Part shown: positions 23,642 through 49,746 of the stretch, one piece after another
Position numbering within the stretch: position 1 is the stretch's first letter
Layout of the letters: every line of letters starts with the position of its first letter
Virus record (IMG/VR): IMGVR_UViG_3300021478_000023
Span: 1-64,000 of that record
Reading direction: 5' to 3' (one strand)
DNA length: 64,000 nt
Origin: a virus
The notes under the pieces: model-generated
What the model was told of the DNA's origin: nothing
Databases searched by the model: none
What the model saw: only the letters and a program-made list of their open reading frames with translations
Position numbers and translations under genes: made by a program

Positions 23642-24133
23642 ATGGCATACTGGTCAGTGGCACAGACCGAGACGCGACGCGAGACGACGGCGGCGGGCTT
23701 CCTGACCGATCAGGGGTACACGACCTACTTGCCGAAAATCAAAGTTGCCCACAAGCGAATCGTACCCCTGTTCCCCGGCTATTTGTTCGTGCGGATCTTC
23801 GACCGATGGTGGAGCGTTAATCAAACCATAGGGGTCATCCAACTCCTGACGGCGGGCGATCATCCCGCCCAAGTGCGAGACTCAATCGTGGAAACGATCA
23901 GGGCGAAAGAACGAGGCGGCATCGTGCGTTTACCCCCGCCGCAAGGGTTGCACGTAGGCCAGAAAGTCCGCGTGCTACGTGGATCTTTCGAGGGTCACAT
24001 AGGGCTCTATGACGGCATGTCCGGCAAGGACCGAGAGCGGGTGTTGCTCGACCTGTTGGGCCGGAAAGTCTCGGTCGATTTCCACAAGGACGACATCGCG
24101 CCGACACCAGATATTGCGCGCAAGGTAATTTAG
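23642..24133 (+). CDS. NusG-family transcription factor
   Basis: A 163-residue protein with the NusG order: an N-terminal NGN domain starting YWSVAQTETRRETTAAGFLT (the WY-x-V-x-T segment of NusG) and carrying VPLFPGYLFVRIF, the RNA-polymerase clamp-contact segment of NusG and RfaH, then a C-terminal KOW domain (GQKVRVLRGSFEGHIGLYDG). At 163 residues it matches RfaH-size paralogues rather than an insertion-bearing NusG. It could act as an antiterminator for the late genes that begin just downstream; three tandem hairpins follow directly. Target and pausing behaviour are inferred. Confidence 0.85.
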   Translation: MAYWSVAQTETRRETTAAGFLTDQGYTTYLPKIKVAHKRIVPLFPGYLFVRIFDRWWSVNQTIGVIQLLTAGDHPAQVRDSIVETIRAKERGGIVRLPPPQGLHVGQKVRVLRGSFEGHIGLYDGMSGKDRERVLLDLLGRKVSVDFHKDDIAPTPDIARKVI

Positions 24134-26742: not shown

Positions 26743-28350
26743 GTGGGCTTGCGTGGCATAGGCGCAAAAACCGAAAAGGCGTTAGCCGAGGAATCCGATC
26801 AACAACGCAACTGGTCGCTTCCCTGGAACAAGGCCGGTTTGACCAAAGCGCAAGCGGTGATCGAATTCTGCGAGACGCTTTCGGTAACAAGCGGACCTGA
26901 CTCGCACAAAAAACTGAAACTGCGAAAGTGGCAAAAGGAATTCATCGAAAAGGTCTACACGACCGACAAGCACGGCAAGCGCTCGGTTCGCACGGCGATC
27001 CTAAGCATGGGCCGCAAAAATGGAAAAACTCAAATCGCCGCAGCGCTCGCACTGGCGCATCTAAGCGGACCAGTGTCGGAATTTCGTGGCGAGGTTTATT
27101 CCTGTGCGAATGATCGATTTCAAGCTGGCAAGATTTTTGCGGAAATGGTTGCGCTGATCGACATGCACCCTTGGCTGAGTGCGCGCACCAACATCATTCG
27201 GTTTCGAAAAGAAATTCAGGATCTAGGAAACGGCTCGACCTACGCTGCACTGACCAGCGAAGCAAAAACCAAGATGGGGCTCAATCCCACGTTTGTCGTG
27301 TATGACGAACTCGGACAAGCTACGGGGCGCACGTTATACGATGCTATGGACAGTGCGATGGGGGCGCGCAAGGAACCGTTGTTGTTGGTCATCAGCACAC
27401 AAGCGGCGGACGATTTTGCACCGATGTCGCAACTGATCGACTACGGTGAAAAGATCAACCACAAGCAAGTTTCAGATCCGGCGTTTCATCTAACGCTGTA
27501 CGCTGCGCCTGCGGATGCAAACCCGTGGGTGCGCGACACCTGGGCGAAAGCCAATCCTGCGCTCGCGGATTTTCGTTCGCTTGATGACGTGCGACGGTTG
27601 GCGAAACAAGCGCAGCGCATGCCAGCGCAAGAAAACGCTTTCAGGAATTTGATTCTCAACCAACGCGTAGCGGCAGAGGCGCGGTTTGTGGATCAACGGC
27701 AATGGAACGAGTGCTCGGCGGCCGCGGACATTCCGCAAGGTGCGCGCGTCTACGCCGGGCTAGATCTTGGTTCAACGAAAGACTTGACCGCGCTTGTGAT
27801 CGTGTGGGGCGATACCAAAGGCGCCTATCACGTAAAGCCCTTTTGCTGGTTGCCGGGAAATCCAAAAGAGCGCGGCGACACTGACCGCGCGCCATACGAT
27901 GCGTGGGTGCGCAGCGGCGATTTGATCTCGGCTGGCGAAACTACAGATCCGAAAATGATCGCGTACCGGATCGCGGAAATAAACGGCATCAACAAAATCG
28001 AAATGCTGGCGTTTGATCGCTGGCGCATGGCAGAGGTACAGCGCGAGCTAGACGCAATCGGTTGCCGCGTTTTGCTTGAACCGATGGGGCAAGGCTACAA
28101 GGATATGAGCGCAGCCGTTGATGTTGTTGAACGGCTTGTTGCACAACGAAACCTACGGCACGGCGGCCATCCTGTGCTGGCATGGTGCGCAGCGAATGCC
28201 GTTGTCACGCGTGACGCGGCGGGCAACAGGAAATTCGACAAGGGCCGCAGCAACGGACGCATCGACGCAATCGTTGCGCTTGCGATGGCGCTCAACATGG
28301 CGGTTCACAAGCGCGCCAAGGAAATCGATATCGACGCGATGATTGCGTGA
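26743..28350 (+). CDS. terL: Terminase large subunit
   Basis: A 535-residue protein with ATPase and nuclease parts in order: LRKWQKEFIEKV, Walker A SMGRKNGKTQ (about residues 87-96), Walker B FVVYDELG (about 184-191), then the RNase-H-like nuclease with GLDLGSTKDLTALVIVWGD (about 338) and the final acidic RIDAIVALAMAL (about 506). This matches the HK97/lambda-unrelated Terminase_1 class of cos phages. The GTG at 26743 follows GGAGTTGTTGAC. It packages DNA through the portal at 38404-39900. Confidence 0.9.
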   Translation: MGLRGIGAKTEKALAEESDQQRNWSLPWNKAGLTKAQAVIEFCETLSVTSGPDSHKKLKLRKWQKEFIEKVYTTDKHGKRSVRTAILSMGRKNGKTQIAAALALAHLSGPVSEFRGEVYSCANDRFQAGKIFAEMVALIDMHPWLSARTNIIRFRKEIQDLGNGSTYAALTSEAKTKMGLNPTFVVYDELGQATGRTLYDAMDSAMGARKEPLLLVISTQAADDFAPMSQLIDYGEKINHKQVSDPAFHLTLYAAPADANPWVRDTWAKANPALADFRSLDDVRRLAKQAQRMPAQENAFRNLILNQRVAAEARFVDQRQWNECSAAADIPQGARVYAGLDLGSTKDLTALVIVWGDTKGAYHVKPFCWLPGNPKERGDTDRAPYDAWVRSGDLISAGETTDPKMIAYRIAEINGINKIEMLAFDRWRMAEVQRELDAIGCRVLLEPMGQGYKDMSAAVDVVERLVAQRNLRHGGHPVLAWCAANAVVTRDAAGNRKFDKGRSNGRIDAIVALAMALNMAVHKRAKEIDIDAMIA

Positions 28351-31194: not shown

Positions 31195-32145
31195 ATGGAC
31201 TGGCAGAACATTCGAGCGCTGGCCGAACACTTGTTGACGCCGCAGCAACGATGGGCGGTGATCAAAGCGCGCGCGCAACGCAATATCGAGAAAGGCCATT
31301 TCATCCAAGATCCGGTCACTGGTTTGCTGGAAGGAAGCGAACCGGGTGGCGGCACTGGCGAGGGTGGCGGCGGCAAGCCGGACGGTGACAAAAAGCCGAG
31401 CGGTGAAGGCAAGGGCAAGCATCCCGGCAAAGGCTACTCGAAAGAGGCGTACATCGATCAACATGGCGTCATTCAAACAAACAACGTCTATGATGCGCAG
31501 CGCGCGTTGTACGAGGACAAAAAGGTTGAGCTAACACAACCAAAAAAAGTCTCGACACTGATCAAGCTACTCGGCAAGAGCGCGGCGGCGATGGAAGCAA
31601 AGGGCAAAGTCGCGCCCGTGTTCAATCTCTGCAACGTGAGCATCAGCGGCACCAACCTGTTTTGCGCGGAATCGAAAGGCATCCCGCGCGTGAAAATGCC
31701 GGTGATCCCGGCCAAGCAAACACAGAAGTTTGTCGATTACCTAAAGGACCAGGGCTACGGGGTAAAGAAAGGCAAGGAATACGCCGCGCATCTGCGCGCG
31801 ACGCAAGATGAGATCAGCGGTGTGAAGGTTGCCGCTGCGATGAAGCGGATCAAGGACAATGGTGGCAAGGTCTACAAGCGCATCATCGTATCGAAAGACA
31901 ATTACATTCTCGACGGTCATCATACCTGGGCTGGCGCGCTCGGCATCGATGCCAAGAACAACAATCTGCATGACGACAAAAGCGTGAAGGTGTTTCGCGT
32001 CAACATTTCGATCACCAAGCTAATCGCGGAAGCGGAAAAGTGGACTGGCGGCAAGGGTAAGAAACCGGCGAGCGAAGCCGCCGACTACATCCCGGTCAGC
32101 AAAGCGTGGGATGACGACCCGCTAGTGTTGGACATGGCCGACTGA
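31195..32145 (+). CDS. Virion-cargo-like protein with ParB-type domain
   Basis: A 316-residue protein. Residues about 35-55 hold a tag (HFIQDPVTGLLEGSEPGGG) followed by a Gly/Lys-rich linker. Residues about 150-280 hold a domain with IVSKDNYILDGHHTWAGALG, the ParB/Srx-fold motif DGHHxW found in many phage-borne and polymorphic-toxin nuclease or DNA-modifying proteins. It is immediately followed by two genes with similar tags, between the RHH gene and the capsid genes. Proteins in this slot in other phages (for example MuF-type) are packed in the capsid and injected. That role is inferred. Confidence 0.6.
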   Translation: MDWQNIRALAEHLLTPQQRWAVIKARAQRNIEKGHFIQDPVTGLLEGSEPGGGTGEGGGGKPDGDKKPSGEGKGKHPGKGYSKEAYIDQHGVIQTNNVYDAQRALYEDKKVELTQPKKVSTLIKLLGKSAAAMEAKGKVAPVFNLCNVSISGTNLFCAESKGIPRVKMPVIPAKQTQKFVDYLKDQGYGVKKGKEYAAHLRATQDEISGVKVAAAMKRIKDNGGKVYKRIIVSKDNYILDGHHTWAGALGIDAKNNNLHDDKSVKVFRVNISITKLIAEAEKWTGGKGKKPASEAADYIPVSKAWDDDPLVLDMAD

Positions 32146-33443
32146 TGCTGACCCAAACCGAACAAGATTTAGTGCGGCGATGGGTGAAACTGCGAACCAA
32201 GTTTGATGAGTCAGAACACCCGCGCGACGAACACGGGCGCTGGACTGATAGCGGCGGCGGTGATGGCGGCGGCGGCAGTACCGCACCAAGCGGCGGCGGC
32301 CCGCTGGTTCTGAGCGAACAGCCCAACCAAGAAAAGATCGAGGTTTGGGAAAAGCAAATTGCTGATCGCCAAAAGGAATTGGAAAAGGAAGGCAAGGCCG
32401 GGGACACTGAGGACGAACAACTAAACCGAATGCAGATTGCTATCAATTCGTACAAGCAAGAGGACAAGGAAACTATCGCCAGTGGAAAGTCGGGGTTCAC
32501 GGCAATCTATCGGCTACCAGAGGATGAAGGCGATCATCGACTAGAAGCCGCAGCGTTCACCTACATCGACAAAAACAACGTCGGCATCATCAAGGATTTT
32601 GGTGCCATAGATCCCGTGGCGCACGCCAAGGCAATCGAGAACATCACCAACCAATTTGGCGATAAGGTCACGCACCTAGAGATCAAACAGTGGAACAACG
32701 ACAAGGAAATTATTGATCCGTTTCTAAAGGCCGGGTTCACGCAACGCGGCGAGCAATACGGCGGCATGGTCACGCTGGTCAAAGCGATGCCGGGCGGAAT
32801 ACGGCTCGGCGCGGAGCACGCACAGAAAATTCTAGGCGCATCGCAAGCGTCGGCCAAGTTGCTTGGTTACGATCCGCAGATGGTTGAGGCCAGCAACGAG
32901 GATCACGAATTTCATGTTGGAAAGGAAACCAAGTCACGCTATGCGGCTGGCCTAGCGTTTTTGAACACGGGAAAGATCATGGTGTTTCCGCGCCAGATCC
33001 CAGACGCTAGTGTTGCGGTCAGCGTCATTGCGCATGAAGTGATGCACCAAAAATATCAGACCGTGCTCAACGCCGTCGAAGCCGAACGCAAGGAAATGAT
33101 GAAAGATCCCGACACGCTACGGGCCATGCGTCCTGACGGTTCGTTGTCGGCACCGCTCGATGCCAAGTATCCGCTCTACTCGCGGTTCGTGAAGCACGAC
33201 AACCAACAAGTCGAGCGCGCCAAGAGCGACGGCATCACGGAATACAGCCGAGCGTATTGGACACAGGCTGCGCCGGGTGTGAGTGACCGAACCGTATCGA
33301 TTCCTGCGGCCAATCACGAAACGCTGGCCGAAATGGCGCGGGTGCTAACTGACACCGGAACGCTGCAAGGTGCGCCCGAGTGGAAAAGCTACTACCGCGA
33401 CGTTGATAAGACCTACAAGGAATTGAAGGCATCTAAGAAATGA
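32145..33443 (+). CDS. Virion-cargo-like protein with zinc metalloprotease domain
   Basis: A 432-residue protein. Residues about 20-40 carry FDESEHPRDEHGRWTDSGGG, a linker-tag form often seen in phage structural and MuF-like proteins. Residues about 110-205 look like a GNAT-type fold (FTAIYRLPEDEGDHRLEAAA ... FLKAGFTQRGEQYGG). Residues about 285-300 contain AHEVMHQKY, the HExxH zinc site (His297, Glu298, His301), with a possible third ligand in NHETLAEM (about 391). The protease may process virion or host proteins after injection. It shares one base with the previous gene. Confidence 0.7.
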   Translation: MLTQTEQDLVRRWVKLRTKFDESEHPRDEHGRWTDSGGGDGGGGSTAPSGGGPLVLSEQPNQEKIEVWEKQIADRQKELEKEGKAGDTEDEQLNRMQIAINSYKQEDKETIASGKSGFTAIYRLPEDEGDHRLEAAAFTYIDKNNVGIIKDFGAIDPVAHAKAIENITNQFGDKVTHLEIKQWNNDKEIIDPFLKAGFTQRGEQYGGMVTLVKAMPGGIRLGAEHAQKILGASQASAKLLGYDPQMVEASNEDHEFHVGKETKSRYAAGLAFLNTGKIMVFPRQIPDASVAVSVIAHEVMHQKYQTVLNAVEAERKEMMKDPDTLRAMRPDGSLSAPLDAKYPLYSRFVKHDNQQVERAKSDGITEYSRAYWTQAAPGVSDRTVSIPAANHETLAEMARVLTDTGTLQGAPEWKSYYRDVDKTYKELKASKK

Positions 33444-35155
33444 TCGAGCGCGTCACCATCGATGGCCGATCAGGTGTTGCTTGTTTCATCGATAGCAAAT
33501 TCAAGCCGGTCGATGAGGCGCAAGCGACTCTCTACAAAATCGTTTTCGATGACGGAGGCCAATTGATCTTGGATGCGCGCCAGGGTGCAGCGCCGCCGCC
33601 GCCACCTAGACGAAAGAAAGACGCTGACGATTTCATTCAAGATCCGACTACTGGTCGGTTGCAAGGTAGGCGACCGGGCAGCGGCGCACTGGACAGTGGC
33701 GGCAACGTCAAGCCGGAATTGCAAGGCGAGATCGCGGCAGGCATTCCGCCACGACCAAAGGAAAAGGGGAAATTCAAGATCGATGATTTCGGCAAGGCGG
33801 GCATCACCTTGGATTCCGGCACCCGCGCCGAACATGACGAAAAGAGCAAAAAGTTTATAGAGCGCTGGAACGACACCGTGCGCGATGCGCCAGAGGATTT
33901 CAAAAACAAATTCCTGGGCGGGCTCGAAGGCACGATGACCATGAGCTACGATGACGATGACGACAAAATCCAAATGACCGGCAACATTTTGGATGAGGAC
34001 GGCAACAAGTTAGGCGAATACAACCGCAAAATTGATTTTGACGACAAGAAAGCCGAGAGTGCGTATTTCAAATTAGAGAATAACGCGCAAGGTCACGGTG
34101 TCGGCAAGCAAATGCTTGCTGGCAACATTGCCACCTATCAACAACTCGGGCTGCACCGTGTAGAGGTTCACGCCAACATCGATATCGGCGGCCACGCCTG
34201 GGCGCGCTACGGCTACGTGCCGATTACAAAGGAAACGGCGACTCAACAGCATGGTTGGCCATCGTTGCGGCGCTACCTCGCAGGCAAGATTGATGACTTG
34301 CAGCACGGCGGCGGCGAGTCGTCGGCGGAAAGTTGGGACGATATGTCATCGAACCAACAAGATCGCATCCGCGACAAGTGGATCGATGAGAACCGTGATG
34401 AGATTGCCAGCGGCGAGGTTGATAACTGGCGCGACCAGGGCGGCGACCTTGCCATAGCCAAGACGCAGATTGCTCAGAGTTTCAATTTCAGTCGCTCAAA
34501 TGCAACGGCAGGATGGGCCAAGGAAGCGCTGGAAGAAACTACCGTCACGGTCAGAGAGGAAGGCCAGGGCGAATTGTTTGGTCAAAAGCCGATTGAGCAC
34601 CAAGTAGATTTGTCTGAGCTAATCGACATCAAGCGATTGATGAAAGCAACAACAATTGGATACGACGACTCCGACGGCGATGGTCGTGGAGATCCGGTCA
34701 TCACGTTTGATGAAAATGAAATACCGGAATTAAACGACGAACAGCGCGACGAAGTTAATCAAGTGCTGGTCGAAGCGTTCAACGAGGAAGCGGACAGCAA
34801 GCGCAGCGATGTTGACCCGCCGTCGTGGCTGGACGATAGCGTGTCTGAATCAGCGGCCGAGTATTTCGACTCGATGCGTGACCGCGACAAATTCAAGTTT
34901 GCGCAAAACAACGACTTGCTACCGACAGGTGAGCGGAGCGAAGGCGGGGAAATGAGCGATGAGGATGCTGACTCGCTGCGCGACTTGATCAACAACGACA
35001 ATCCGAAAGCGCTGTGGGCGGTTGCCGATAGCAAGTGGGGCAAGAAATTGCTGATCGACGCCGACTGGTATGGCGTGCTCGATCTCGCCGACAAGGAAAC
35101 GATGGACCGCTTCAATGCCTACGTCGGGAAAAAGCCGAGCCACGGAACCAGCTAA
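33440..35155 (+). CDS. Virion-cargo-like protein with GNAT acetyltransferase domain
   Basis: A 571-residue protein. The tag DFIQDPTTGRLQGRRPGSG (about residues 64-82) parallels the one in 31195-32145. Residues about 130-285 contain the acetyl-CoA pyrophosphate loop QGHGVGKQML (about 217-226) and HRVEVHANIDIGGHAWARYG, as in GNAT enzymes. The rest is acidic with no recognised domain. Acetylation of host targets after injection is a possible function; a packaged structural role is the alternative. Confidence 0.6.
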   Translation: MIERVTIDGRSGVACFIDSKFKPVDEAQATLYKIVFDDGGQLILDARQGAAPPPPPRRKKDADDFIQDPTTGRLQGRRPGSGALDSGGNVKPELQGEIAAGIPPRPKEKGKFKIDDFGKAGITLDSGTRAEHDEKSKKFIERWNDTVRDAPEDFKNKFLGGLEGTMTMSYDDDDDKIQMTGNILDEDGNKLGEYNRKIDFDDKKAESAYFKLENNAQGHGVGKQMLAGNIATYQQLGLHRVEVHANIDIGGHAWARYGYVPITKETATQQHGWPSLRRYLAGKIDDLQHGGGESSAESWDDMSSNQQDRIRDKWIDENRDEIASGEVDNWRDQGGDLAIAKTQIAQSFNFSRSNATAGWAKEALEETTVTVREEGQGELFGQKPIEHQVDLSELIDIKRLMKATTIGYDDSDGDGRGDPVITFDENEIPELNDEQRDEVNQVLVEAFNEEADSKRSDVDPPSWLDDSVSESAAEYFDSMRDRDKFKFAQNNDLLPTGERSEGGEMSDEDADSLRDLINNDNPKALWAVADSKWGKKLLIDADWYGVLDLADKETMDRFNAYVGKKPSHGTS

Positions 35156-35337: not shown

Positions 35338-37617
35338 ATGCCGATGAAACCACGCAAGGGCGAAAGCCAATCGGATTTCACCGCGCGATGCGTGCCTGAA
35401 ATGATGGGCGACGGCAAGCGCGAACAGGACCAAGCGGTTGCAGCGTGCCTCGATATCTGGCGCAACAGAGACAAGGAACACACCATGCCCAAGACGCTCA
35501 CTCGCGACGGCGACAACGGCGACATGCCAGATCCCGACGATTACGATGATTACGATGAGTTTCTACCTGACTGCATGGACGCCGGTTTCGATGAGGACGC
35601 TTGTCGCTCGGCCTATCGCGGCGAGCGCGCGGCGGACGGCATCGTGCACAAGACGCACGCTGGCGACATCAACGGCAGCGAATATGTGTTGAGCGATGAG
35701 ACGCCGGATCGCATGGGCGACATCATCGAGTCTGCCGGTTGGGATTTGCGGTCGTTCAAGAGCAACCCCATAGCTTTGTTTGGTCACAAGTCTGATTTTC
35801 CGATTGGCCGTTGGCGCAACGTCGGCGTCAACAAGGAAAAGCAATTGCGCGGGCACTTGGAACTGGCGCCGAAAGGCACAAGTCCGCGCATCGATGAGAT
35901 ACGTGCGCTGGTTGATGCGGGAATCCTGCGCGCGGTTTCGGTCGGCTTCAAGCCGCTCGACGCTACCCCGCTCAATGCTAAAGACCCATTCGGCGGACAG
36001 CGTTTCTCTAAGCAAGAGCTAGTCGAGTGCAGCTTGGTAGCAGTACCAGCAAACCCGAACGCTTTGTCCGTCGCCAAGTCTTTAAAGATCTCCGATGACA
36101 CGCAAAGTCTCGTTTTCGCCAAGCATGGCAAGGGAAACGGAACCGTCCAGCGTGCCGTCGTTCACGGCAAGCCTGCCACACGCACTCCTGATGGAAAGAA
36201 AACCATCATGACTCCCCTCACGCAGCGCATCACCGATGCGCAAGCCCGCATCGTCGCCCTCAAGGCGGCGCTCGGCGAGCACTTGGGTAGCATCGATGAC
36301 TCCAACGTCACCGATGAGCAAATGAATCAGACGACCGAATTCAACAACAAGATCGTGCAAGAGGAACGCACGCTCGCGATGTTGGTGGAGTCGGAGAAGC
36401 ACATTGCGGCTGCGACCGCCGCCGAGCACGGCACGAATGGCGGCGGCACGACAATCGTTACGCGCGACAACCGCACCGGCATGGCCAACGCGCGGCCATT
36501 CAGCATGCCGCAAAAGAAATTCGACCCGCTCGACGTTCTGGTGCGCGGCTGCACGGTGCAAATGTTTAGCCACATCCGCAAAACCAACATCGAAGATACG
36601 CGGGCGTGGCTGGCCGCCAACGGCAACCCGACATACAACGACGACTACACCAGGGCGTATGTCGAGTGGCACACCAAGGCCGCGAGCGCGCCTGCGATGA
36701 CGACGGTCACTGGTTGGGCCGCCGAGTTAGTGCAAACGGTCTACGCCGCGTTCATGGAATCGCTGTTCCCGAAATCGGTCTATCCGCGCCTTGCGGCCAA
36801 GGGACTCGATCTTTCGTTTGGTCGCGCTGGCAAGATCAGCATTCCTACGCGTGCTCTCACACCGACAATCGCCGGTTCGTTTGTTGGTGAAGGCGCGCCG
36901 ATTCCTGTTCGTCAGGGTGCATTCACCGCGCAAGTCCTGACGCCAAAGAAAATGGCCGTGATAACTACTTGGACCAGGGAAATGGACGAGCATTCCGTTC
37001 CCGCCATCGAGGGATTGCTGCGTCAAGCAATCCAAGACGACACCGCTATCGCGATTGATAGCGTGCTACTCGACAGCAACCCGGCGACCGCCGTGCGGCC
37101 CGCTGGCATTCTTAACGGTGTCACGCCTCTGACCGCGACTGCGGGCGGCGGCTTCAACGCACTTGTTGGTGACATCAAGCAATTGTCGGGTGCGTTGCTC
37201 ACCGCGACGCGCGGCAACGTGCGTTCACCGGCTTGGATCATGAATCCGCAGCAAGTTATGAGTGCTGGACTCACACCGGCACCGGCATCCGGCGTATTTC
37301 CGTTTGATACGTCGGACGGACGGCTCAATACATGGCCGATCATCGACTCGGGGACCGTGCCTATGGGCACGATCATCGCAATGGACGCCGCTGACTTTGT
37401 TGGTGCGGGCGAAAACCCGCGCTTCGAAATCAGCGATCAGGCGACGCTTCACTTTGACGACACCGCCCCGCTCGATATCGTGGCTGGCGGCACGGCTTCG
37501 ACTCCGGTCAAGTCACTGTGGCAGACCGATAGCATCGGCCTGCGGCTGATCCTGCCGCTCAATTGGCTCAACCGTCGCCCCGGCACGGTTGCCGCGATTG
37601 TCGGCGTGACTTGGTAA
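35338..37617 (+). CDS. Fused HK97-type prohead protease and major capsid protein
   Basis: A single 759-residue frame. Residues 1-45 hold a small helical Cys-containing module (FTARCVPEMM ... VAACLDIW). Residues about 100-240 are a U35-type prohead protease: FGHKSDFPIGRW carries the catalytic His, and ILRAVSVGFKPL the nucleophilic Ser, followed by ELVECSLVAVPANPNA. Residues about 300-370 are a scaffold-like coiled coil, and residues about 430-759 an HK97-fold capsid (ESLFPKSVYPRLAAKGLDLS, then GSFVGEGAPIPVRQGAF). An in-frame ATG at 36208 (residue 291) with GGAAAG upstream could start the capsid alone. The capsid must be separated from the protease by maturation or by that internal start. Confidence 0.85.
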   Translation: MPMKPRKGESQSDFTARCVPEMMGDGKREQDQAVAACLDIWRNRDKEHTMPKTLTRDGDNGDMPDPDDYDDYDEFLPDCMDAGFDEDACRSAYRGERAADGIVHKTHAGDINGSEYVLSDETPDRMGDIIESAGWDLRSFKSNPIALFGHKSDFPIGRWRNVGVNKEKQLRGHLELAPKGTSPRIDEIRALVDAGILRAVSVGFKPLDATPLNAKDPFGGQRFSKQELVECSLVAVPANPNALSVAKSLKISDDTQSLVFAKHGKGNGTVQRAVVHGKPATRTPDGKKTIMTPLTQRITDAQARIVALKAALGEHLGSIDDSNVTDEQMNQTTEFNNKIVQEERTLAMLVESEKHIAAATAAEHGTNGGGTTIVTRDNRTGMANARPFSMPQKKFDPLDVLVRGCTVQMFSHIRKTNIEDTRAWLAANGNPTYNDDYTRAYVEWHTKAASAPAMTTVTGWAAELVQTVYAAFMESLFPKSVYPRLAAKGLDLSFGRAGKISIPTRALTPTIAGSFVGEGAPIPVRQGAFTAQVLTPKKMAVITTWTREMDEHSVPAIEGLLRQAIQDDTAIAIDSVLLDSNPATAVRPAGILNGVTPLTATAGGGFNALVGDIKQLSGALLTATRGNVRSPAWIMNPQQVMSAGLTPAPASGVFPFDTSDGRLNTWPIIDSGTVPMGTIIAMDAADFVGAGENPRFEISDQATLHFDDTAPLDIVAGGTASTPVKSLWQTDSIGLRLILPLNWLNRRPGTVAAIVGVTW

Positions 37618-38110: not shown

Positions 38111-38407
38111 ATGCCTGATCCTAAAGCGGTCGATCCTAGCTCTTGGTCGCCAACCCCGACGCAAGAGGAAAACGATCTCGCCGCGTCCGGTCTACACGTC
38201 GATCATAAAGAGGATGACGGCAGTCCTGTTGATGAGAACATCCATCCGCCAGGACTTGAGGAAAGCAAAAAGAAAAAACAGGTGCAAGCCGATCAACCGA
38301 CGCGCGGCGGCTACCAAACACGACAGGTCAGACCAGAACAACCAAGAACACCGGCAACCCCTTCACACCCGCCACCGCTCTCACATCCACACTCCGACGA
38401 TAAATGA
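38111..38407 (+). CDS. Acidic/charged small protein, tandem paralogue B
   Basis: A 98-residue disordered protein. WSPTPTQEENDLAASGLHVD and HKEDDGSPVDEN match the neighbour at 37704-38018, so the two arose by duplication. ACAGGAGTCACCA precedes the ATG. It ends on the ATGA of the portal gene. Confidence 0.55.
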   Translation: MPDPKAVDPSSWSPTPTQEENDLAASGLHVDHKEDDGSPVDENIHPPGLEESKKKKQVQADQPTRGGYQTRQVRPEQPRTPATPSHPPPLSHPHSDDK

Positions 38408-39900
38408 ACCGCTTGCTGGCGAAAATCGCAGCCCCTTTCATCCGCAAAAGTTTGGTTGGTCAGGATGAGGGGGGCTATCGCCCTGGCCCGTGGCAACTGC
38501 CGGTTTCTGGCGGTTGGCTTCCGGTCGGGGTTGGCGAATATGTCAATTGGTGGCAGCTTGGCTTTGATCCGGTTTACGGATCAAGCAACTCTGCAATTGT
38601 TGAAGCATGCGTGTCGGCCTACGCGCAGACCGTGGCCATGTGCCCTGGCGATCATTGGAAATCCAACGACAAGGGCGGACGCACGCGCATCACCAACTCG
38701 GCGCTATCTCGCATTCTGCGCTATCCGAACGACTATCAATCGATCTCCGATTTCATGATGAATTTGACGCGCAACCTGTACCTAACAGGCAACGCGTATG
38801 CGCTGGCGCTGCGCAACGACCGTTTCGAGATTGACGAATTGCACCCGATGGACCCGGACATATCGCGCCCGATGGTCGCGAGCACGGGCGACGTGTTCTA
38901 TCAACTCGGCGGCAACGACGTTATCCAAAACCGGCTAACCGGATCATCGAACCAGATTTTGACTGCGGTGCCGATGCGCGACGTGCTGCACATTCGGCTC
39001 AACACGCAACGGCAATGGCCGCGCCCGTTGCTAGGTCAATCGCCGCTTGAAGCCGCGATGCAAGACATCGGCCTTGGCTCGGCAATCACCGCACAGCAAA
39101 TGCGGTTCTATCAAAACGAGGCGCGGCCATCCGCCGTGCTCTCGACCGATTTGGTGCTCGACAAGGAACAAGTCGCGCAACTACGCGACCGATGGGATGA
39201 ACAATCCAAGGGCTTGCGCCAGGGCGGCACACCGATCCTGACCGCAGGATTGAAGGTGCAGCCGTGGGGCGTTAGCGGCGGCAAAGAGTCAGCGATTGCC
39301 GATATCGCCAAGATGAGCAAGGAAAACATCGCGCTCGCATTCCGCGTTCCATTGCAGATCCTTGGCATCGGCGGCACACCGTTTTCGTCAACCGAGTTGT
39401 TGATGCAGTCGTGGATCGCATCGGGGCTCGGTTTTTGTTTGAACCATATCGAGGAAGCATTCGGCTTCCTCTACAATTGCAAGGGCCAGCCGGACGAATA
39501 CGTTGAGTTTAGCACCGACGCGTTGCTGCGCTCGGCCTACAGCGTTCGTATTGAAGGGTTGGCCCGTGGCGTGCAGGGCGGCATCTATTCGCCGAACGAA
39601 GCGCGCAACATGGAAGGGCTTGACGACGTTAAGTTTGGTGATGAGCCGCGCGTTCAACAACAAGTAGTCCCGCTTTCCGCAGCGGCGCAAATCCAAGCAC
39701 AAGCGCCCGGATCAACCGGACCAAAGCCGCCATCCGCACCTGGGCCGGATGCGCCACCCGCGCCGCCATCCGCAGCATCCGCCGAAGCGCCGAAAGCGCC
39801 AGCGCCGAAAGAGCCGAAAGGCAACCCCGATGACATCAAACGGGAAGCACGAAAACTTTTCGCAGCCGTTGAGCGAGCCGGACGGCGATATTCTCAGTGA
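38404..39900 (+). CDS. HK97-family portal protein
   Basis: A 498-residue protein with the portal order: IVEACVSAYAQTVAMCPGDH, DFMMNLTRNLYLTGNAYALA, DVLHIRLNTQRQ and ALAFRVPLQILGIGGTPFSS, TELLMQSWIASGLGFCLNHI. The last 90 residues are a Pro/Ala linker and a short basic end that overlap the next gene by 71 bases. Placed after the capsid gene, whereas most HK97-type phages put the portal first. It is the dodecameric DNA channel at one capsid vertex. Confidence 0.85.
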   Translation: MNRLLAKIAAPFIRKSLVGQDEGGYRPGPWQLPVSGGWLPVGVGEYVNWWQLGFDPVYGSSNSAIVEACVSAYAQTVAMCPGDHWKSNDKGGRTRITNSALSRILRYPNDYQSISDFMMNLTRNLYLTGNAYALALRNDRFEIDELHPMDPDISRPMVASTGDVFYQLGGNDVIQNRLTGSSNQILTAVPMRDVLHIRLNTQRQWPRPLLGQSPLEAAMQDIGLGSAITAQQMRFYQNEARPSAVLSTDLVLDKEQVAQLRDRWDEQSKGLRQGGTPILTAGLKVQPWGVSGGKESAIADIAKMSKENIALAFRVPLQILGIGGTPFSSTELLMQSWIASGLGFCLNHIEEAFGFLYNCKGQPDEYVEFSTDALLRSAYSVRIEGLARGVQGGIYSPNEARNMEGLDDVKFGDEPRVQQQVVPLSAAAQIQAQAPGSTGPKPPSAPGPDAPPAPPSAASAEAPKAPAPKEPKGNPDDIKREARKLFAAVERAGRRYSQ

Positions 39901-41383
39901 AGTTGTCCGCGAAGTTCTCGCCGATGTTATCGCCGCTGAAAAAAATCAATGGCAGCGCGAGCGTGCGCTGATCGAAGCGCAAGCGGCGCAAGCTATCGCC
40001 GAGTTTCGTGGCCAGCTAATCGAAACGCGCGATGAATTGAATCGCATGGTCGCGAACACGGTTGCTGACCTACAAGCGAATTTCGCGGCGAGACTGCGCG
40101 AGCTACGCAACGGAGATCCCGGCGAGCCGGGACCGCCAGGGCAGCAAGGCGCACCGGGACCGATAGGCGAACGTGGTGCACCGGGCGAGCGCGGAGATCC
40201 GGGCGTGCCTGGGCGCGACGGCACACCGGGCGAGCCGGGACCGATAGGCCAGCAAGGTCCGCCCGGCGACACCCGCATGTTTGAATCCGAGGCGCGGACA
40301 ACGATGGCGGAAATGCGCGCCGACGTGATGACGCTGCGCAGCCAAGTCAACGAAACGGTCGAGCGGCGGCTGGCCAGTCTGCGCGACGGCAAGGATGGGG
40401 CACCGGGCGCACCTGGGGCGCGCGGCGATCCTGGGCCGCAGGGCGAGCGCGGAGATCGCGGCGAGCGCGGGTCACTCGGCTTGCGCGGCGAGCGTGGCCT
40501 ACCGGGCGAGCCGGGTCCGGCAGGCATGCAGGGCGCACCGGGCGAGCGCGGCGAGGCCGGGCCGCAGGGTGAGCAAGGGCTACCCGGCGAAATCGGTCCA
40601 GCGGGTCCGCAGGGCGAGCGCGGTATGGCCGGATTGATGGGCAACCCTGGCAACGACGGCGCACCGGGCGAGCGCGGCGAGCGCGGAGATCCGGGCGAGG
40701 TTGGCCCGCAAGGTGAGCGCGGCGAGGTTGGGATTGCGGGCGCCGAGGGCTTGCGCGGCGAGCCCGGCGAGCAAGGAATTCCCGGCGAGCGCGGCGAGGT
40801 TGGGCCGCAGGGACTCGTCGGCAAGGATGGACTACCGGGCGAACCGGGTCCGCGCGGCGAGCGCGGCGAAATTGGCCCGCCCGGCAGGCTTCCGGTCGTG
40901 AAGGCGTACCGCCCCGGCGCGGTGCACTATGAGGCCGACGTTGTGACGCTCGGCGGCTGCACCTATCAGGCAATCCGCGACACCGCGAGCGCGCCGCCCG
41001 ATGAGGATTGGATTTGCTTGGCGAGCGCTGGCATCGATGCGATCTCGCCAACCGTGCGCAGCACATGGCTCGCGACCGAGACATATTCCAAACTCGATAT
41101 CGTTGCGCTCGACGGATCTAGCTTCATTGCGCGCAAGGATAATCCCGGCCCGTGTCCCGGTGACGATTGGCAGATGATCGTCGGACGTGGGCGACCGGGC
41201 AAGCAAGGCGAGCGCGGCACCAAGGGTGATCGCGGCGAGCCCGGCGAACCGGGCGCAATAATCCTGGCGTGGAAAATCGACCGCGAGAACTACACCATCA
41301 CGCCGATGATGTCGGACGGCACGAAAGCGTTGCCGATCAACATGCGCGAGTTGTTTGAGCAATTCCAAGCCGAGGCGCGTTGA
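39830..41383 (+). CDS. Collagen-like fibre protein of the head-neck region
   Basis: A 517-residue protein from ATG 39830. Residues about 1-100 form a helical N-terminus ([20 protein letters not shown]). Two collagen-type Gly-X-Y stretches follow (about 102-152 and 198-360; for example [16 protein letters not shown]), separated by a helix. The end has two similar units of a carbohydrate-binding type ([20 protein letters not shown] and [20 protein letters not shown]), then a short Gly-X-Y stretch and a C-terminal cap. It lies between portal and connector genes, so it may be a head or neck fibre that binds host or surface polysaccharide. TGATG links it to the next gene. Confidence 0.75.
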
Positions 41384-46874: not shown

Positions 46875-47021
46875 TTGAACTGCTACCGGCTCGCGCGCTG
46901 GTATCACGTCAGTCCTGATTTGTTTCTATCGATGACCTACGGCGAGGTTCACTTGCACTTGCGGCGCACCTTGCAACTCGCGAACTTGTTGCAGCGGGAA
47001 TCATCATCCGATGGCGAATGA
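46875..47021 (+). CDS. Second tail-chaperone frame, TTG start
   Basis: A 48-residue frame (LARWYHVSPDLFLSMTYGEV, then a helix). TTG at 46875 has GAGGAAATAATC before it; the frame lies at -1 relative to the chaperone gene and is open further upstream. Tail chaperones of Mu-like phages usually have a second product made by -1 frameshift or a close restart. I see no slippery heptamer in register, so the TTG restart is preferred. Confidence 0.55.
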   Translation: MNCYRLARWYHVSPDLFLSMTYGEVHLHLRRTLQLANLLQRESSSDGE

Positions 47022-49746
47022 ACAACAAGAATTGGAACTGCGCGTCACGCTGGACGATCAGGCGTCCGCGCAGCTTCAACATATTCGCGAGGCTCTTAGC
47101 GGACTCGGGGGAGCAAGCCACGCTACCTCACACATAAGCGATTTTGAGCAAGCCATCGGCAGGCTTGGCCGGGCAGCGGTTGGTTTCGGACGCGCATCGG
47201 TCGAACTAGCCAAGGTCATCGGGCCGATGCCGGTCGCGATGGGCGCACTCGCTTATCAAACCTTGCGCGTCAACGAACAGATGAAGGAATGGGCGGCGAG
47301 TTTGCAGGCAACCGGCAATGCCGCGCGCATGGCCGGAATAAGCGTCGGGGAATTTAAAAGCATCGTTGGTCAATTGCGTCAGGCTGGCGTGTCGGCTGGC
47401 GACGCATCATCGATGATCTTGAATTTCACCAAAGCCTACGGCGAGTTGATGACCGCTGGCAGCGCGCGGCGTCAACAACTAATCCAACTCGCCGGGCCGG
47501 AATTTGCCGGTCACATGATTCAAGGAATTCAGTTGATTGGTAGGCTGCAATCCGACACTGAAAAGCTAAACGCCATTCGGCAGATGGGAGAGAACGTCTA
47601 TCAAAACAAGCTAAGAGAATCCCACGACACGATGCTCGCAGCGGCAGCGCGCCAGGATTTTTTTGAAGCGCTGAATGTTTCACAACTCGCCAATCTGCGC
47701 CGCGATATGGTGCAATACGATGAGCGCACCAAAGCAAACATGAAAGCCGAGGAAGAGTCGGCGCAACGATTGGCAGCGGCCTACACCAAGGAAGAAGAAG
47801 CACGCAATCGAATTGGTGACATCATCAAAGTTTCGATGGCGGAACAAGAACTAAAAGTCCTCAACGTCCTCATCAAGATTGAACAGTGGATTGACCGGCG
47901 CGCCGAAGTGTTTGAGAGCCAACGCACCGCTGGCACTGACTTTATGACGCAAGCCGGGAAGGGATACGGCGACGTAGCGCACATGACCGGGGCTGACGCG
48001 GTTCACAGATTTTTAAAGAACCAAGGGTTAGCCTTCCAGCGCGGCGGCATATTCAACAAACCTACAGTCGGGATGCTCGGCGAGGCCGGACCCGAAGCGG
48101 TCATTCCGCTCTCTCAGATGGGCAGCTTTGGTGGCGGCATCGCAAGACAAAACACCGAGCAAAACACCGATGAGCTAACGCGGCTCAGTAAAAACATCCA
48201 ATTGATGTTGGACAAACATATCGGGCTTGCCATTCCTAAACTTGCACGCGGCGGGCGAGTAAGCGGTCGAACAGTCGCGATGGCTGGCGAGGCCGGACCA
48301 GAGGCCATCGATGGGCCGGGTGGCAGGCGTATCATAAACGGACCAACAATCGGCACGCTTGATGCTGGCGAGACGGTGACACCGCTGCGCAACACCAACA
48401 AATACGTCACTGGCGACACGATGCGAGCAATCGGTGAGTCCCGCACCGGGAAGGCGAGTTTCTACGGCAATTATCGGGGGCAACAGAATTGGGTTGATAA
48501 GGGGGACATGGACAAATACGGGCGGCCTCTGCCGGGTTATTCTGGCACGCCGTTGGACGTGCCTGGAATAGCATTGCCGACAACGGTCACGGCTGGCGGC
48601 GCTGGCAAGCAAGCTGGCGATTGGTTCGCGGTGACTGGACCGGACGGCAGAACATTTTATGCGCCGCAAGTTGATGTTGGTCCCGGCAAGAGAACGGATC
48701 GAATTGTTGATATCAATGCCCCGTTAGCGGAGGCAATGGGATACGTGCCCGACGAAGTGAAGGGCGGGCGACATTTTCCAACCGATGCAAATTTCACCGT
48801 GGCGCGCGCCGATCCAAACAGAGCGGTTATGTCTAAGTTTCCGATGCCTGACACGTCGCTCGCTGATGAACCAATTAACAACATTTCGTTCAAACTGGCC
48901 GATCAATCATTGCGTATTCCGCCAACGGCGCAGACCTCATCCGCCGATGCGCCGACGCAACATCCACACGATGCGCCTGTGACTCGCGGCAACATTAAAA
49001 TTCCGCACTCGGCGGCAGAGATCGCGAGTTGGCAGCAATACTTTACGAACCCGCTTGCTGACATTGAGGACGAACTATCGTCGCAGCGTAGCAAGGCGCG
49101 CGAGGCTATCGCGGGAGTCGGCAAGCAAGGGAGTTTTGGTGCCAATGTGTTGCAGGCCGGGAAAGCCGCGTGGGAGAGTTACAAATATGCGTCGCCTACC
49201 GGCACAGGATTTGACGCAATCTTGCACACGACGCTCGGTCGCGTAGCTGGCGGCGCGGTTGGCGGACGCGAGGCCGGGAATGTTTTGTCTGACGTTGCAA
49301 GTCCATTCATTCCGAGAGCACCAAGCGCACCGGCTTATTCCGTCGCCGAGCAAGCATTGGATTTTGCCAAGGACAAAAATCTGATTGCGCTTTCTGGAAC
49401 AGCATTCAGTCGAATAAAGCTAGGACTCAAAGTGGCCGAGTCCGCCCAACAAGCAATCAAAGGCGAGGGACTCGATAAGTCGTTGGCCGAATCGTTTGGG
49501 CTAGGGGCAAAAAAACAAATCAAGATTGTGCAGGAGAACGCGCCGCCAGGAACAACGGTCGAAGCCGATGGTCCGGGCTTCAAGGATGTTGAACACGAAA
49601 CAACCCGCGAAACCTCGCAGCCATTGTTTGATCCGAGTCAGAAAGCCAAGTGGCGGCACCCCGACGCCAGCGAGAGATCGCGGCAGCATAACGCCGCGCA
49701 GCAACACGACCACGATGTTGTAGGTGTTGGCGGGATACGCGGATAA
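47011..49746 (+). CDS. Tape measure protein 1, with RlpA/DPBB-like domain
   Basis: A 911-residue protein. Residues about 1-370 are the tape-measure core (ELAKVIGPMPVAMGALAYQT, then AGTDFMTQAGKGYGDVAHMT, and VGMLGEAGPEAVIPLSQMG). Residues about 475-600 look like a double-psi beta-barrel: GKASFYGNYRG, PLDVPGIALP, then VDVGPGKRTDRIVDINAPLA. DPBB domains of RlpA type bind or cut peptidoglycan. The rest is linker-like with a charged C-terminus. It ends three bases before a second tape-measure gene with a closely similar N-terminal half. Confidence 0.8.
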   Translation: MANEQQELELRVTLDDQASAQLQHIREALSGLGGASHATSHISDFEQAIGRLGRAAVGFGRASVELAKVIGPMPVAMGALAYQTLRVNEQMKEWAASLQATGNAARMAGISVGEFKSIVGQLRQAGVSAGDASSMILNFTKAYGELMTAGSARRQQLIQLAGPEFAGHMIQGIQLIGRLQSDTEKLNAIRQMGENVYQNKLRESHDTMLAAAARQDFFEALNVSQLANLRRDMVQYDERTKANMKAEEESAQRLAAAYTKEEEARNRIGDIIKVSMAEQELKVLNVLIKIEQWIDRRAEVFESQRTAGTDFMTQAGKGYGDVAHMTGADAVHRFLKNQGLAFQRGGIFNKPTVGMLGEAGPEAVIPLSQMGSFGGGIARQNTEQNTDELTRLSKNIQLMLDKHIGLAIPKLARGGRVSGRTVAMAGEAGPEAIDGPGGRRIINGPTIGTLDAGETVTPLRNTNKYVTGDTMRAIGESRTGKASFYGNYRGQQNWVDKGDMDKYGRPLPGYSGTPLDVPGIALPTTVTAGGAGKQAGDWFAVTGPDGRTFYAPQVDVGPGKRTDRIVDINAPLAEAMGYVPDEVKGGRHFPTDANFTVARADPNRAVMSKFPMPDTSLADEPINNISFKLADQSLRIPPTAQTSSADAPTQHPHDAPVTRGNIKIPHSAAEIASWQQYFTNPLADIEDELSSQRSKAREAIAGVGKQGSFGANVLQAGKAAWESYKYASPTGTGFDAILHTTLGRVAGGAVGGREAGNVLSDVASPFIPRAPSAPAYSVAEQALDFAKDKNLIALSGTAFSRIKLGLKVAESAQQAIKGEGLDKSLAESFGLGAKKQIKIVQENAPPGTTVEADGPGFKDVEHETTRETSQPLFDPSQKAKWRHPDASERSRQHNAAQQHDHDVVGVGGIRG

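What the first reader, a model, noticed from the sequence alone, without database searches (positions are those of the whole stretch)
31195..35155. Tagged three-gene set of likely injected effector proteins
Three consecutive genes join a short related tag (FIQDPxTGxLxG..PGxG or HPRDEHGRWTDSGGG) to different effector-type domains: a ParB-type DGHHxW domain, a HExxH zinc protease, and GNAT folds. They precede the capsid gene, the position of MuF-type cargo in other phages. A common tag could direct packing into the head.
Basis: partly seen in the sequence, partly recalled or inferred. Interest (0 to 1): 0.8.

Follow-up and report, generated by a model that had tools for sequence, protein, structure and literature searches.

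The report
Tagged phage head-cargo effector genes
This virus of bacteria carries three neighbouring genes whose different enzyme domains share the same short address-label-like sequence, and in more than a hundred related uncultivated phage sequences that label sits in front of many unrelated enzymes next to (sometimes fused to) the head-building proteins, which suggests a common system for loading enzymes into the virus head and injecting them into the host.

Summary
Three overlapping genes (31195-35155) each carry one short disordered tag ahead of an enzyme-like module: ParB/sulfiredoxin-like; GNAT plus HExxH; GNAT. They lie between terminase and a fused protease-capsid gene. The two spellings are one positional element: close relatives carry PRDExGxWTDGGG exactly where this phage has FIQDPxTGxLxG. 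A tag pattern gave 108 stretches in viral contigs but 8 in 84,980 bacterial/archaeal genomes, at least six of those beside phage genes. Downstream modules match ADP-ribosyltransferases (T4 Alt-like), zeta kinases, topoisomerase IB, 2H, GNAT, zincin-like and MuF families; other tags sit on portal proteins. All 30 non-redundant tagged ORFs that could be tested lie between terminase and protease/portal. Tags within one contig resemble each other more than tags on the same module in other contigs, and conservation is at protein, not codon, level. In 11 of 40 relatives tagged cargo is fused in frame to protease and major capsid protein. Best reading: polyvalent-type virion cargo sharing a head-targeting and/or maturation signal, functionally like the T4 and P1 capsid-targeting sequences. 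Packaging and injection are inferred; docking versus cleavage is unresolved. New variant of a known kind.

The parts
26743..28350 (+). terminase large subunit (upstream border of the cargo interval)
   Evidence: Pfam TerL_nuclease 1e-32, TerL_ATPase 6e-20; phrog_9 2e-125
31195..32145 (+). cargo gene g1, 316 aa: N-terminal helix-like stretch + tag + ParB/sulfiredoxin-like module with DGHHTW
   Evidence: homologous module in the 3,792-aa 'putative internal virion polymerase' of Pseudomonas phage phiC725A and in F116/LKA5-type phages
31297..31353 (+). tag 1, HFIQDPVTGLLEGSEPGGG (variant C)
   Evidence: positional equivalent of YDENEPRDESGKWTDGGG in L055
31423..32076 (+). g1 conserved module (aa 77-294), 28 relatives, 73% mean column identity
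32145..33443 (+). cargo gene g2, 432 aa: helix 4-22, tag (disordered), GNAT 51-220, HExxH module 240-432
32202..32261 (+). tag 2, FDESEHPRDEHGRWTDSGGG (canonical, class A)
   Evidence: residues 20-49 have pLDDT below 50
32295..32804 (+). GNAT fold of g2
   Evidence: VIA-align Z 13.2, rmsd 2.8, 138 aligned to 4u5y_A
33033..33047 (+). HEVMH motif of g2 (putative zinc protease site); conserved HETLAEM at 33315-33335
33440..35155 (+). cargo gene g3, 571 aa: beta N-terminus, disordered tag region 46-101, GNAT about 160-270, helical/beta C-terminal region without a known family
33629..33685 (+). tag 3, DFIQDPTTGRLQGRRPGSG (variant C)
   Evidence: L055 (75% identical g3) has FDPNEPRDETGKWTEGGG at this site; L006 has the class B tag after the same N-terminus
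35338..37617 (+). S78 prohead protease fused to HK97-type major capsid protein
   Evidence: Peptidase_S78 9e-7, Phage_capsid 3e-8; phrog_617 1e-76
38404..39900 (+). portal protein
   Evidence: Phage_portal 3e-66

Best explanation
g1-g3 are head cargo of a tailed phage, of the polyvalent-protein kind: late enzymes made in one operon, taken into the procapsid and injected with the DNA to act on the new host. The shared tag (a basic Arg/Ala/Leu-rich stretch, then [FYW]-[DN]-x-x-x-P-R-D-x-x-G-[RK]-W-T-x-G-G-G or its variants, then a flexible Gly-rich linker) is the element that brings unrelated modules into the head, by binding one common procapsid partner (scaffold/protease region, capsid inner face or portal). 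It is functionally like the T4 and P1 capsid-targeting sequences and may also be cut during head maturation, as the T4 sequence is. Shown here: tag, modules, positions, fusions, positional equivalence of the spellings, coherence of tags within one contig, protein-level conservation. Inferred: packaging, injection, docking partner, enzymatic targets.
For: Tag pattern: 108 stretches in viral contigs, 8 in 84,980 genomes. 30 of 30 non-redundant tagged ORFs between TerL and protease/portal on the same strand. Of 12 loci fetched by the g1 module without using the tag, all carry a tag on the g1 ORF. 86 of 88 relatives of g1-g3 with an intact 5' end match a tag class by pattern; the other two show FNPNHEPGGSP(Q/T)GGQF. 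Modules after tags: ADPrib_exo_Tox, ART-PolyVal, Zeta_toxin, Top1B, ParB_N, His_Phos, 2H/LigT, GNAT, Phage_Mu_F; Alt-like ART, minor head, protease and portal PHROGs. Portal-tag-JAB and MuF-tag proteins. 11 of 40 protease-capsid ORFs have tagged cargo fused upstream, several keeping an internal ATG with a purine-rich ribosome-site-like sequence. Tags in one contig on different modules 0.50 identical at variable columns; same module in other contigs 0.38; unrelated 0.30; label permutation maximum 0.37. Codon choice at invariant residues resembles that of the whole ORFs, so selection is on protein. Tag disordered in both models.
Against: No virion proteomics. Tags persist in ORFs covalently fused to the capsid protein, and lie between portal or MuF and a following stretch, where a docking signal seems redundant. 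Some multi-tag ORFs carry 3 to 7 tags, more than docking needs. Within-contig similarity could also come from internal duplication or gene conversion (codon identity 0.61 within versus 0.45 between contigs). Class B tags also occur on small ORFs for which no head gene was detected.
Confidence: 0.55

Rival explanations
1. The tag is primarily a cleavage site for the head-maturation (S78) protease: it marks module borders in cargo polyproteins and is cut inside the procapsid to release single enzymes or to remove a short N-terminal targeting helix.
For: Tags recur at module borders with 74-660 aa spacing, up to 13 in one contig (L126). They occur between portal and a JAB module. An S78 protease is encoded next to them. 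T4 targeting sequences combine targeting and processing (PMC9026906).
Against: 0 of 40 protease-capsid ORFs have a tag between protease and capsid, the junction such a protease is expected to cut, and tags are hardly ever between the last cargo module and the protease in fusions. The conserved core is long (about 18 residues) and bipartite with variable spacing (GKW versus PAGSPEGGQF at the same site). Some ORFs have two modules behind a single tag (L018, L035, L090).
Confidence: 0.25
2. The tag is a passive flexible linker that spread with shuffled cargo genes and has no specific partner.
For: Gly-rich, disordered, at module borders, several spellings at one site.
Against: The PRD..G.W core and unselected flanking columns ([FYD] at -5, [EQH] at -1 in 99%) are conserved between alphaproteobacterial-type and Ruminococcus-type phages, more than a Gly linker needs; tags within a genome are coherent across unrelated modules.
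Confidence: 0.12
3. The genes are late intracellular proteins (for instance superinfection exclusion or host take-over) that never enter the virion.
For: No direct evidence of packaging; GNAT and zinc proteases also act in infected cells.
Against: In-frame fusion with protease-capsid, portal and MuF proteins; an Alt-like ART repertoire; the g1 module lies in a protein annotated as an internal virion protein in cultured Pseudomonas phages.
Confidence: 0.08

Closest known systems
Phage polyvalent proteins (Iyer et al. 2017, PMC5512222)
   Same: Same kinds of domains (zincin-like peptidases, ParB-like, GNAT, ART, 2H, RadC-like), late-gene position beside virion genes, multi-domain architecture, occasional C-terminal assemblin-like protease.
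   Different: No shared tag or linker is described in the parts of that paper read here ('linker' occurs nowhere in it); here modules are often split into single small genes that each keep a tag, and the C-terminal fusion extends through the protease to the major capsid protein.
T4 capsid-targeting sequence (IPI-III, Alt; reviewed in PMC9026906) and P1 DarB N-terminal targeting sequence (PMC9024508)
   Same: A short, mostly N-terminal element ahead of unrelated head cargo; T4 Alt is an injected ADP-ribosyltransferase, and ART is the commonest family after these tags.
   Different: Sequence is unrelated by inspection; here the tag also recurs between modules and lies behind portal or MuF domains. 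For P1 the authors found no consensus among the Dar proteins; here a consensus spans many cargo types and phages.
MuF polymorphic toxins (Jamet et al. 2017, PMC5576092)
   Same: Head-associated delivery of variable C-terminal effector modules.
   Different: The window proteins lack a MuF domain; the common part is a short disordered tag, not a folded portal-binding domain. A MuF protein with the tag exists (L118).
Giant internal virion proteins of Pseudomonas phages phiC725A/F116/LKA5
   Same: Contain a homologue of the g1 module (32-34% identity).
   Different: One huge polypeptide (3,792 aa in phiC725A), and no tag of these classes was recognised in it.

Membership tests
Phage polyvalent proteins | Disparate domains combined in one polypeptide | tested here: met
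   g2 holds GNAT plus an HExxH module; relatives join 2 to 5 or more modules. g1 and g3 in the window are each built on one main module.
Phage polyvalent proteins | Encoded among late/virion genes of a portal-terminase phage | tested here: met
   Between TerL and protease-capsid/portal
Phage polyvalent proteins | Carried in the virion and injected | not testable with these tools
   Needs virion proteomics; only genomic context is available
MuF polymorphic toxins | N-terminal MuF domain (PF04233) | tested here: not met
   No Pfam match in g1-g3 at E up to 1
T4/P1-type capsid-targeting sequence | Short element at or near the N-terminus of cargo | tested here: met
   Tags start at residue 35, 20 and 64; 56 of 111 complete tagged ORFs have the first tag within 60 aa of the N-terminus, 2 within 60 aa of the C-terminus
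T4/P1-type capsid-targeting sequence | Sufficient to direct a reporter into the head | not testable with these tools
   Needs a fusion assay
T4/P1-type capsid-targeting sequence | Removed by the prohead protease (T4) | not testable with these tools
   Needs N-terminal sequencing; indirect evidence is mixed
GNAT acetyltransferase (g2, g3) | GNAT fold | tested here: met
   g2 VIA-align Z 13.2; g3 Foldseek prob 1.00, E 7e-4
Zincin metallopeptidase (g2) | HExxH in a helix, downstream Glu, zincin fold | tested here: inconclusive
   HEVMH in helix 288-320 and conserved HETxAE present; fold not matched by itself
ParB/sulfiredoxin superfamily (g1) | Superfamily profile or fold match | tested here: inconclusive
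   Weak matches around DGHH only (E 0.04-0.3; phrog_8071 E 0.06); no fold was predicted for g1

The most novel reading that the evidence does not exclude
A short consensus address tag routes dozens of unrelated enzymes into the heads of a large, mostly uncultivated group of phages; each phage keeps its own tag spelling matched to a common procapsid partner; and in some members the cargo is made as the N-terminal part of the protease-major-capsid polyprotein, with an internal start setting how many copies enter the head. It would be a natural modular protein-delivery system with exchangeable cargo.
Probability: 0.4. Interest if true: 0.85.

Novelty: new variant of a known kind. Interest (0 to 1): 0.68.

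Why it matters
Which phage proteins are packaged and injected is usually found one phage at a time by proteomics. A consensus tag would let virion-delivered effectors be read from sequence across metagenomes, would expose many uncharacterised early-infection enzymes, and gives a directly testable short signal for loading proteins into HK97-type heads. For P1 the authors looked for a consensus among their cargo and found none (PMC9024508).

Tried and rejected
Pfam and NCBIfam for g1-g3: nothing informative. tblastn of g3 and of tag peptides in cultured phages and plasmids: no match, or only an E=5 hit; tag peptides are short and partly low-complexity, so this is weak evidence of absence. DNA-level recombination seam: rejected, since codon use at invariant tag residues resembles that of the whole ORFs. 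Tag as the protease's capsid cut site: no tag at that junction in 40 ORFs. Fetching g2 and g3 relatives from single sequences found none in viral contigs, so only g1 gives a tag-independent sample. The L016 'fusion' contains an Arg-rich stretch before the protease that reads like an out-of-frame segment and may be a frameshift artefact; the other ten do not depend on it. Actinobacterial phages sharing the 2H module show no such tag. Text search for tag spellings in papers: none; searches for capsid-polyprotein effectors found no description. Several loci are overlapping fetches of the same contigs, so the position test was repeated on de-duplicated loci; the other loci counts are not fully de-duplicated.
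Full report
What is in the window. The window lies in a 72.4-kb uncultivated virus record. Reading downstream: terminase large subunit 26743-28350, three small or Gly-rich ORFs, the three genes of the finding 31195-35155, an S78 prohead protease fused to an HK97-type major capsid protein 35338-37617, and a portal protein 38404-39900. The tail genes are of a contractile, Mu-like type (sheath, GpP-like hub, baseplate J). The three genes overlap at their stop/start codons, so they form one operon.

Observation. Each of the three proteins carries one tag near its N-terminus, and no other ORF of the window matches these tag patterns. In the AlphaFold models of g2 and g3 the tag regions are disordered (residues 20-49 of g2 and 46-101 of g3 below pLDDT 50), while the modules behind them fold well. 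g2 is a GNAT (VIA-align Z 13.2) followed by a helical HExxH module; g3 has a GNAT and a long uncharacterised C-terminal region. The g1 module is strongly conserved among relatives (73% mean column identity, 28 sequences) and only weakly matched to ParB/sulfiredoxin-fold proteins at DGHH. A homologue lies inside the 3,792-aa protein annotated 'putative internal virion polymerase' of Pseudomonas phage phiC725A and in F116- and LKA5-type phages.

The two spellings are one element. The L055 contig has a g3 75% identical to the window's. Where the window has DDFIQDPTTGRLQGRRPGSG, L055 has KFDPNEPRDETGKWTEGGG, and the flank LQGEIAA...KEKGKFKIDDF resumes behind both. L006 shares the same g3 N-terminus and has a third spelling, WDESQHPRDPAGSPTGGQF, there. 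In g1, L055 has YDENEPRDESGKWTDGGG where the window has HFIQDPVTGLLEGSEPGGG, between matching flanks. So class A (PRDExGxWTDGGG), class B (HPRxPAGSxxGGQF) and class C (FIQDPxTGxLxG) exchange at orthologous sites.

How widespread and how specific. A degenerate DNA pattern for class A found 108 stretches in viral contigs and 8 in one genome each of 84,980 bacterial and archaeal species. Of these eight, three are portal proteins, one lies beside a portal, one beside a neck-type protein and one in a contig with phage-like genes; one (L129) and one (L128) are unclear. A class B pattern found 89 stretches, and 16 of the 77 newly fetched loci with a class B ORF also hold a class A tag, which had not been asked for. 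As a sample not selected by tag, 12 of 12 loci fetched by the g1 sequence carry a tag on that ORF. Columns outside the search pattern are conserved too ([FYD] at -5; E, Q or H at -1 in 99%).

What the tags are joined to. Ninety-one representative segments behind tags match 28 Pfam families at E up to 0.01, among them ADP-ribosyltransferases, zeta-toxin kinases, topoisomerase IB, ParB_N, histidine phosphatase, 2H phosphoesterases, GNAT, zincin-type families and MuF; and 47 PHROGs, led by Alt-like RNA polymerase ADP-ribosyltransferase and including minor head, head-maturation protease and portal families. Portal-tag-JAB and MuF-tag proteins were seen directly. One ORF can hold up to seven tags, and one contig (L126) holds thirteen on three ORFs.

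Position and fusion. In 19 non-redundant loci with both terminase and protease or portal, all 30 tagged ORFs lie between them on the same strand. In 11 of 40 unique protease-capsid ORFs tagged cargo is fused in frame upstream, confirmed by Pfam for L013, L025, L033, L038 and L107. In L013, L033, L040 and L107 the internal ATG that corresponds to the separate gene's start is still preceded by a purine-rich, ribosome-site-like sequence, so both a long and a short product are plausible (inference). About thirty fetched stretches also carry a second, free-standing capsid-protein-like gene; the one tested by Pfam (L012) gave no match by itself, so it is a homologue by local profile only.

Why a common partner. 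At the variable tag columns, tags in one contig on different modules are 0.50 identical, tags on the same module in different contigs 0.38, and all others 0.30; label permutation never exceeded 0.375. Codon choice at invariant residues resembles that of the whole ORFs, so conservation is of the protein. Both fit a tag that evolves with one partner in each phage. Intragenomic copying is not excluded (codon identity 0.61 within versus 0.45 between contigs).

Mechanism and rivals. Best supported: procapsid targeting, with or without cleavage, of injected enzymes. The T4 sequence combines both roles (PMC9026906), and the P1 DarB N-terminus does the targeting (PMC9024508). A pure protease-site reading is weakened by the absence of tags at the protease/capsid junction (0 of 40) and by variable spacing inside the element. 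A pure docking reading is weakened by tags in ORFs already fused to the portal or capsid protein. Packaging, injection and targets are not shown.

Placement. The genes fit polyvalent proteins (PMC5512222) in domains and context; they are not MuF toxins (no MuF domain). The shared tag is not described in the papers found and read. Verdict: new variant of a known kind, interest 0.68.

Noticed in passing
L012:1302-2396, L013:2412-4394, L025:251-1336 and about 30 further fetched stretches: A second capsid-protein-like ORF (most about 350-370 aa) lies between terminase and cargo in many relatives, besides the protease-fused capsid gene; in L013, L015 and L063 the hit is in a ~660-aa ORF that itself bears a tag. 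Found by a local profile only; Pfam gives no match for the L012 copy.
   Followed up: partly
window 47011-49746 and 49750-52746: Two adjacent large tail genes with similar N-termini (LRVTLDDQASAQLQHIREAL and LRLIVRLDDQASGQLQNLRAHL), as if the tape-measure-type gene had been duplicated; only the first has a weak PhageMin_Tail match.
   Followed up: partly
window 39749-41383: Long collagen-like Gly-X-Y repeat protein directly behind the portal gene, overlapping its end.
   Followed up: no
window 23642-24133: A NusG-family transcription factor gene (Pfam NusG, 2.5e-13) upstream of the late genes, a possible late antiterminator.
   Followed up: partly
L126:2557-12662: Thirteen tags on three consecutive ORFs of 1409, 310 and at least 1688 aa; a string of tagged modules including an RNA 2',3'-cyclic phosphodiesterase-like one.
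   Followed up: partly
L132:767-2749 and L131:2-1183: Portal proteins of Ruminococcus-type prophages end in tag plus a RadC-like JAB module, so the tag is not confined to alphaproteobacterial phages.
   Followed up: partly
L016:790-6591, about residues 1055-1150: Arg-rich stretch that looks like an out-of-frame reading just before the protease; possible frameshift or assembly error.
   Followed up: partly
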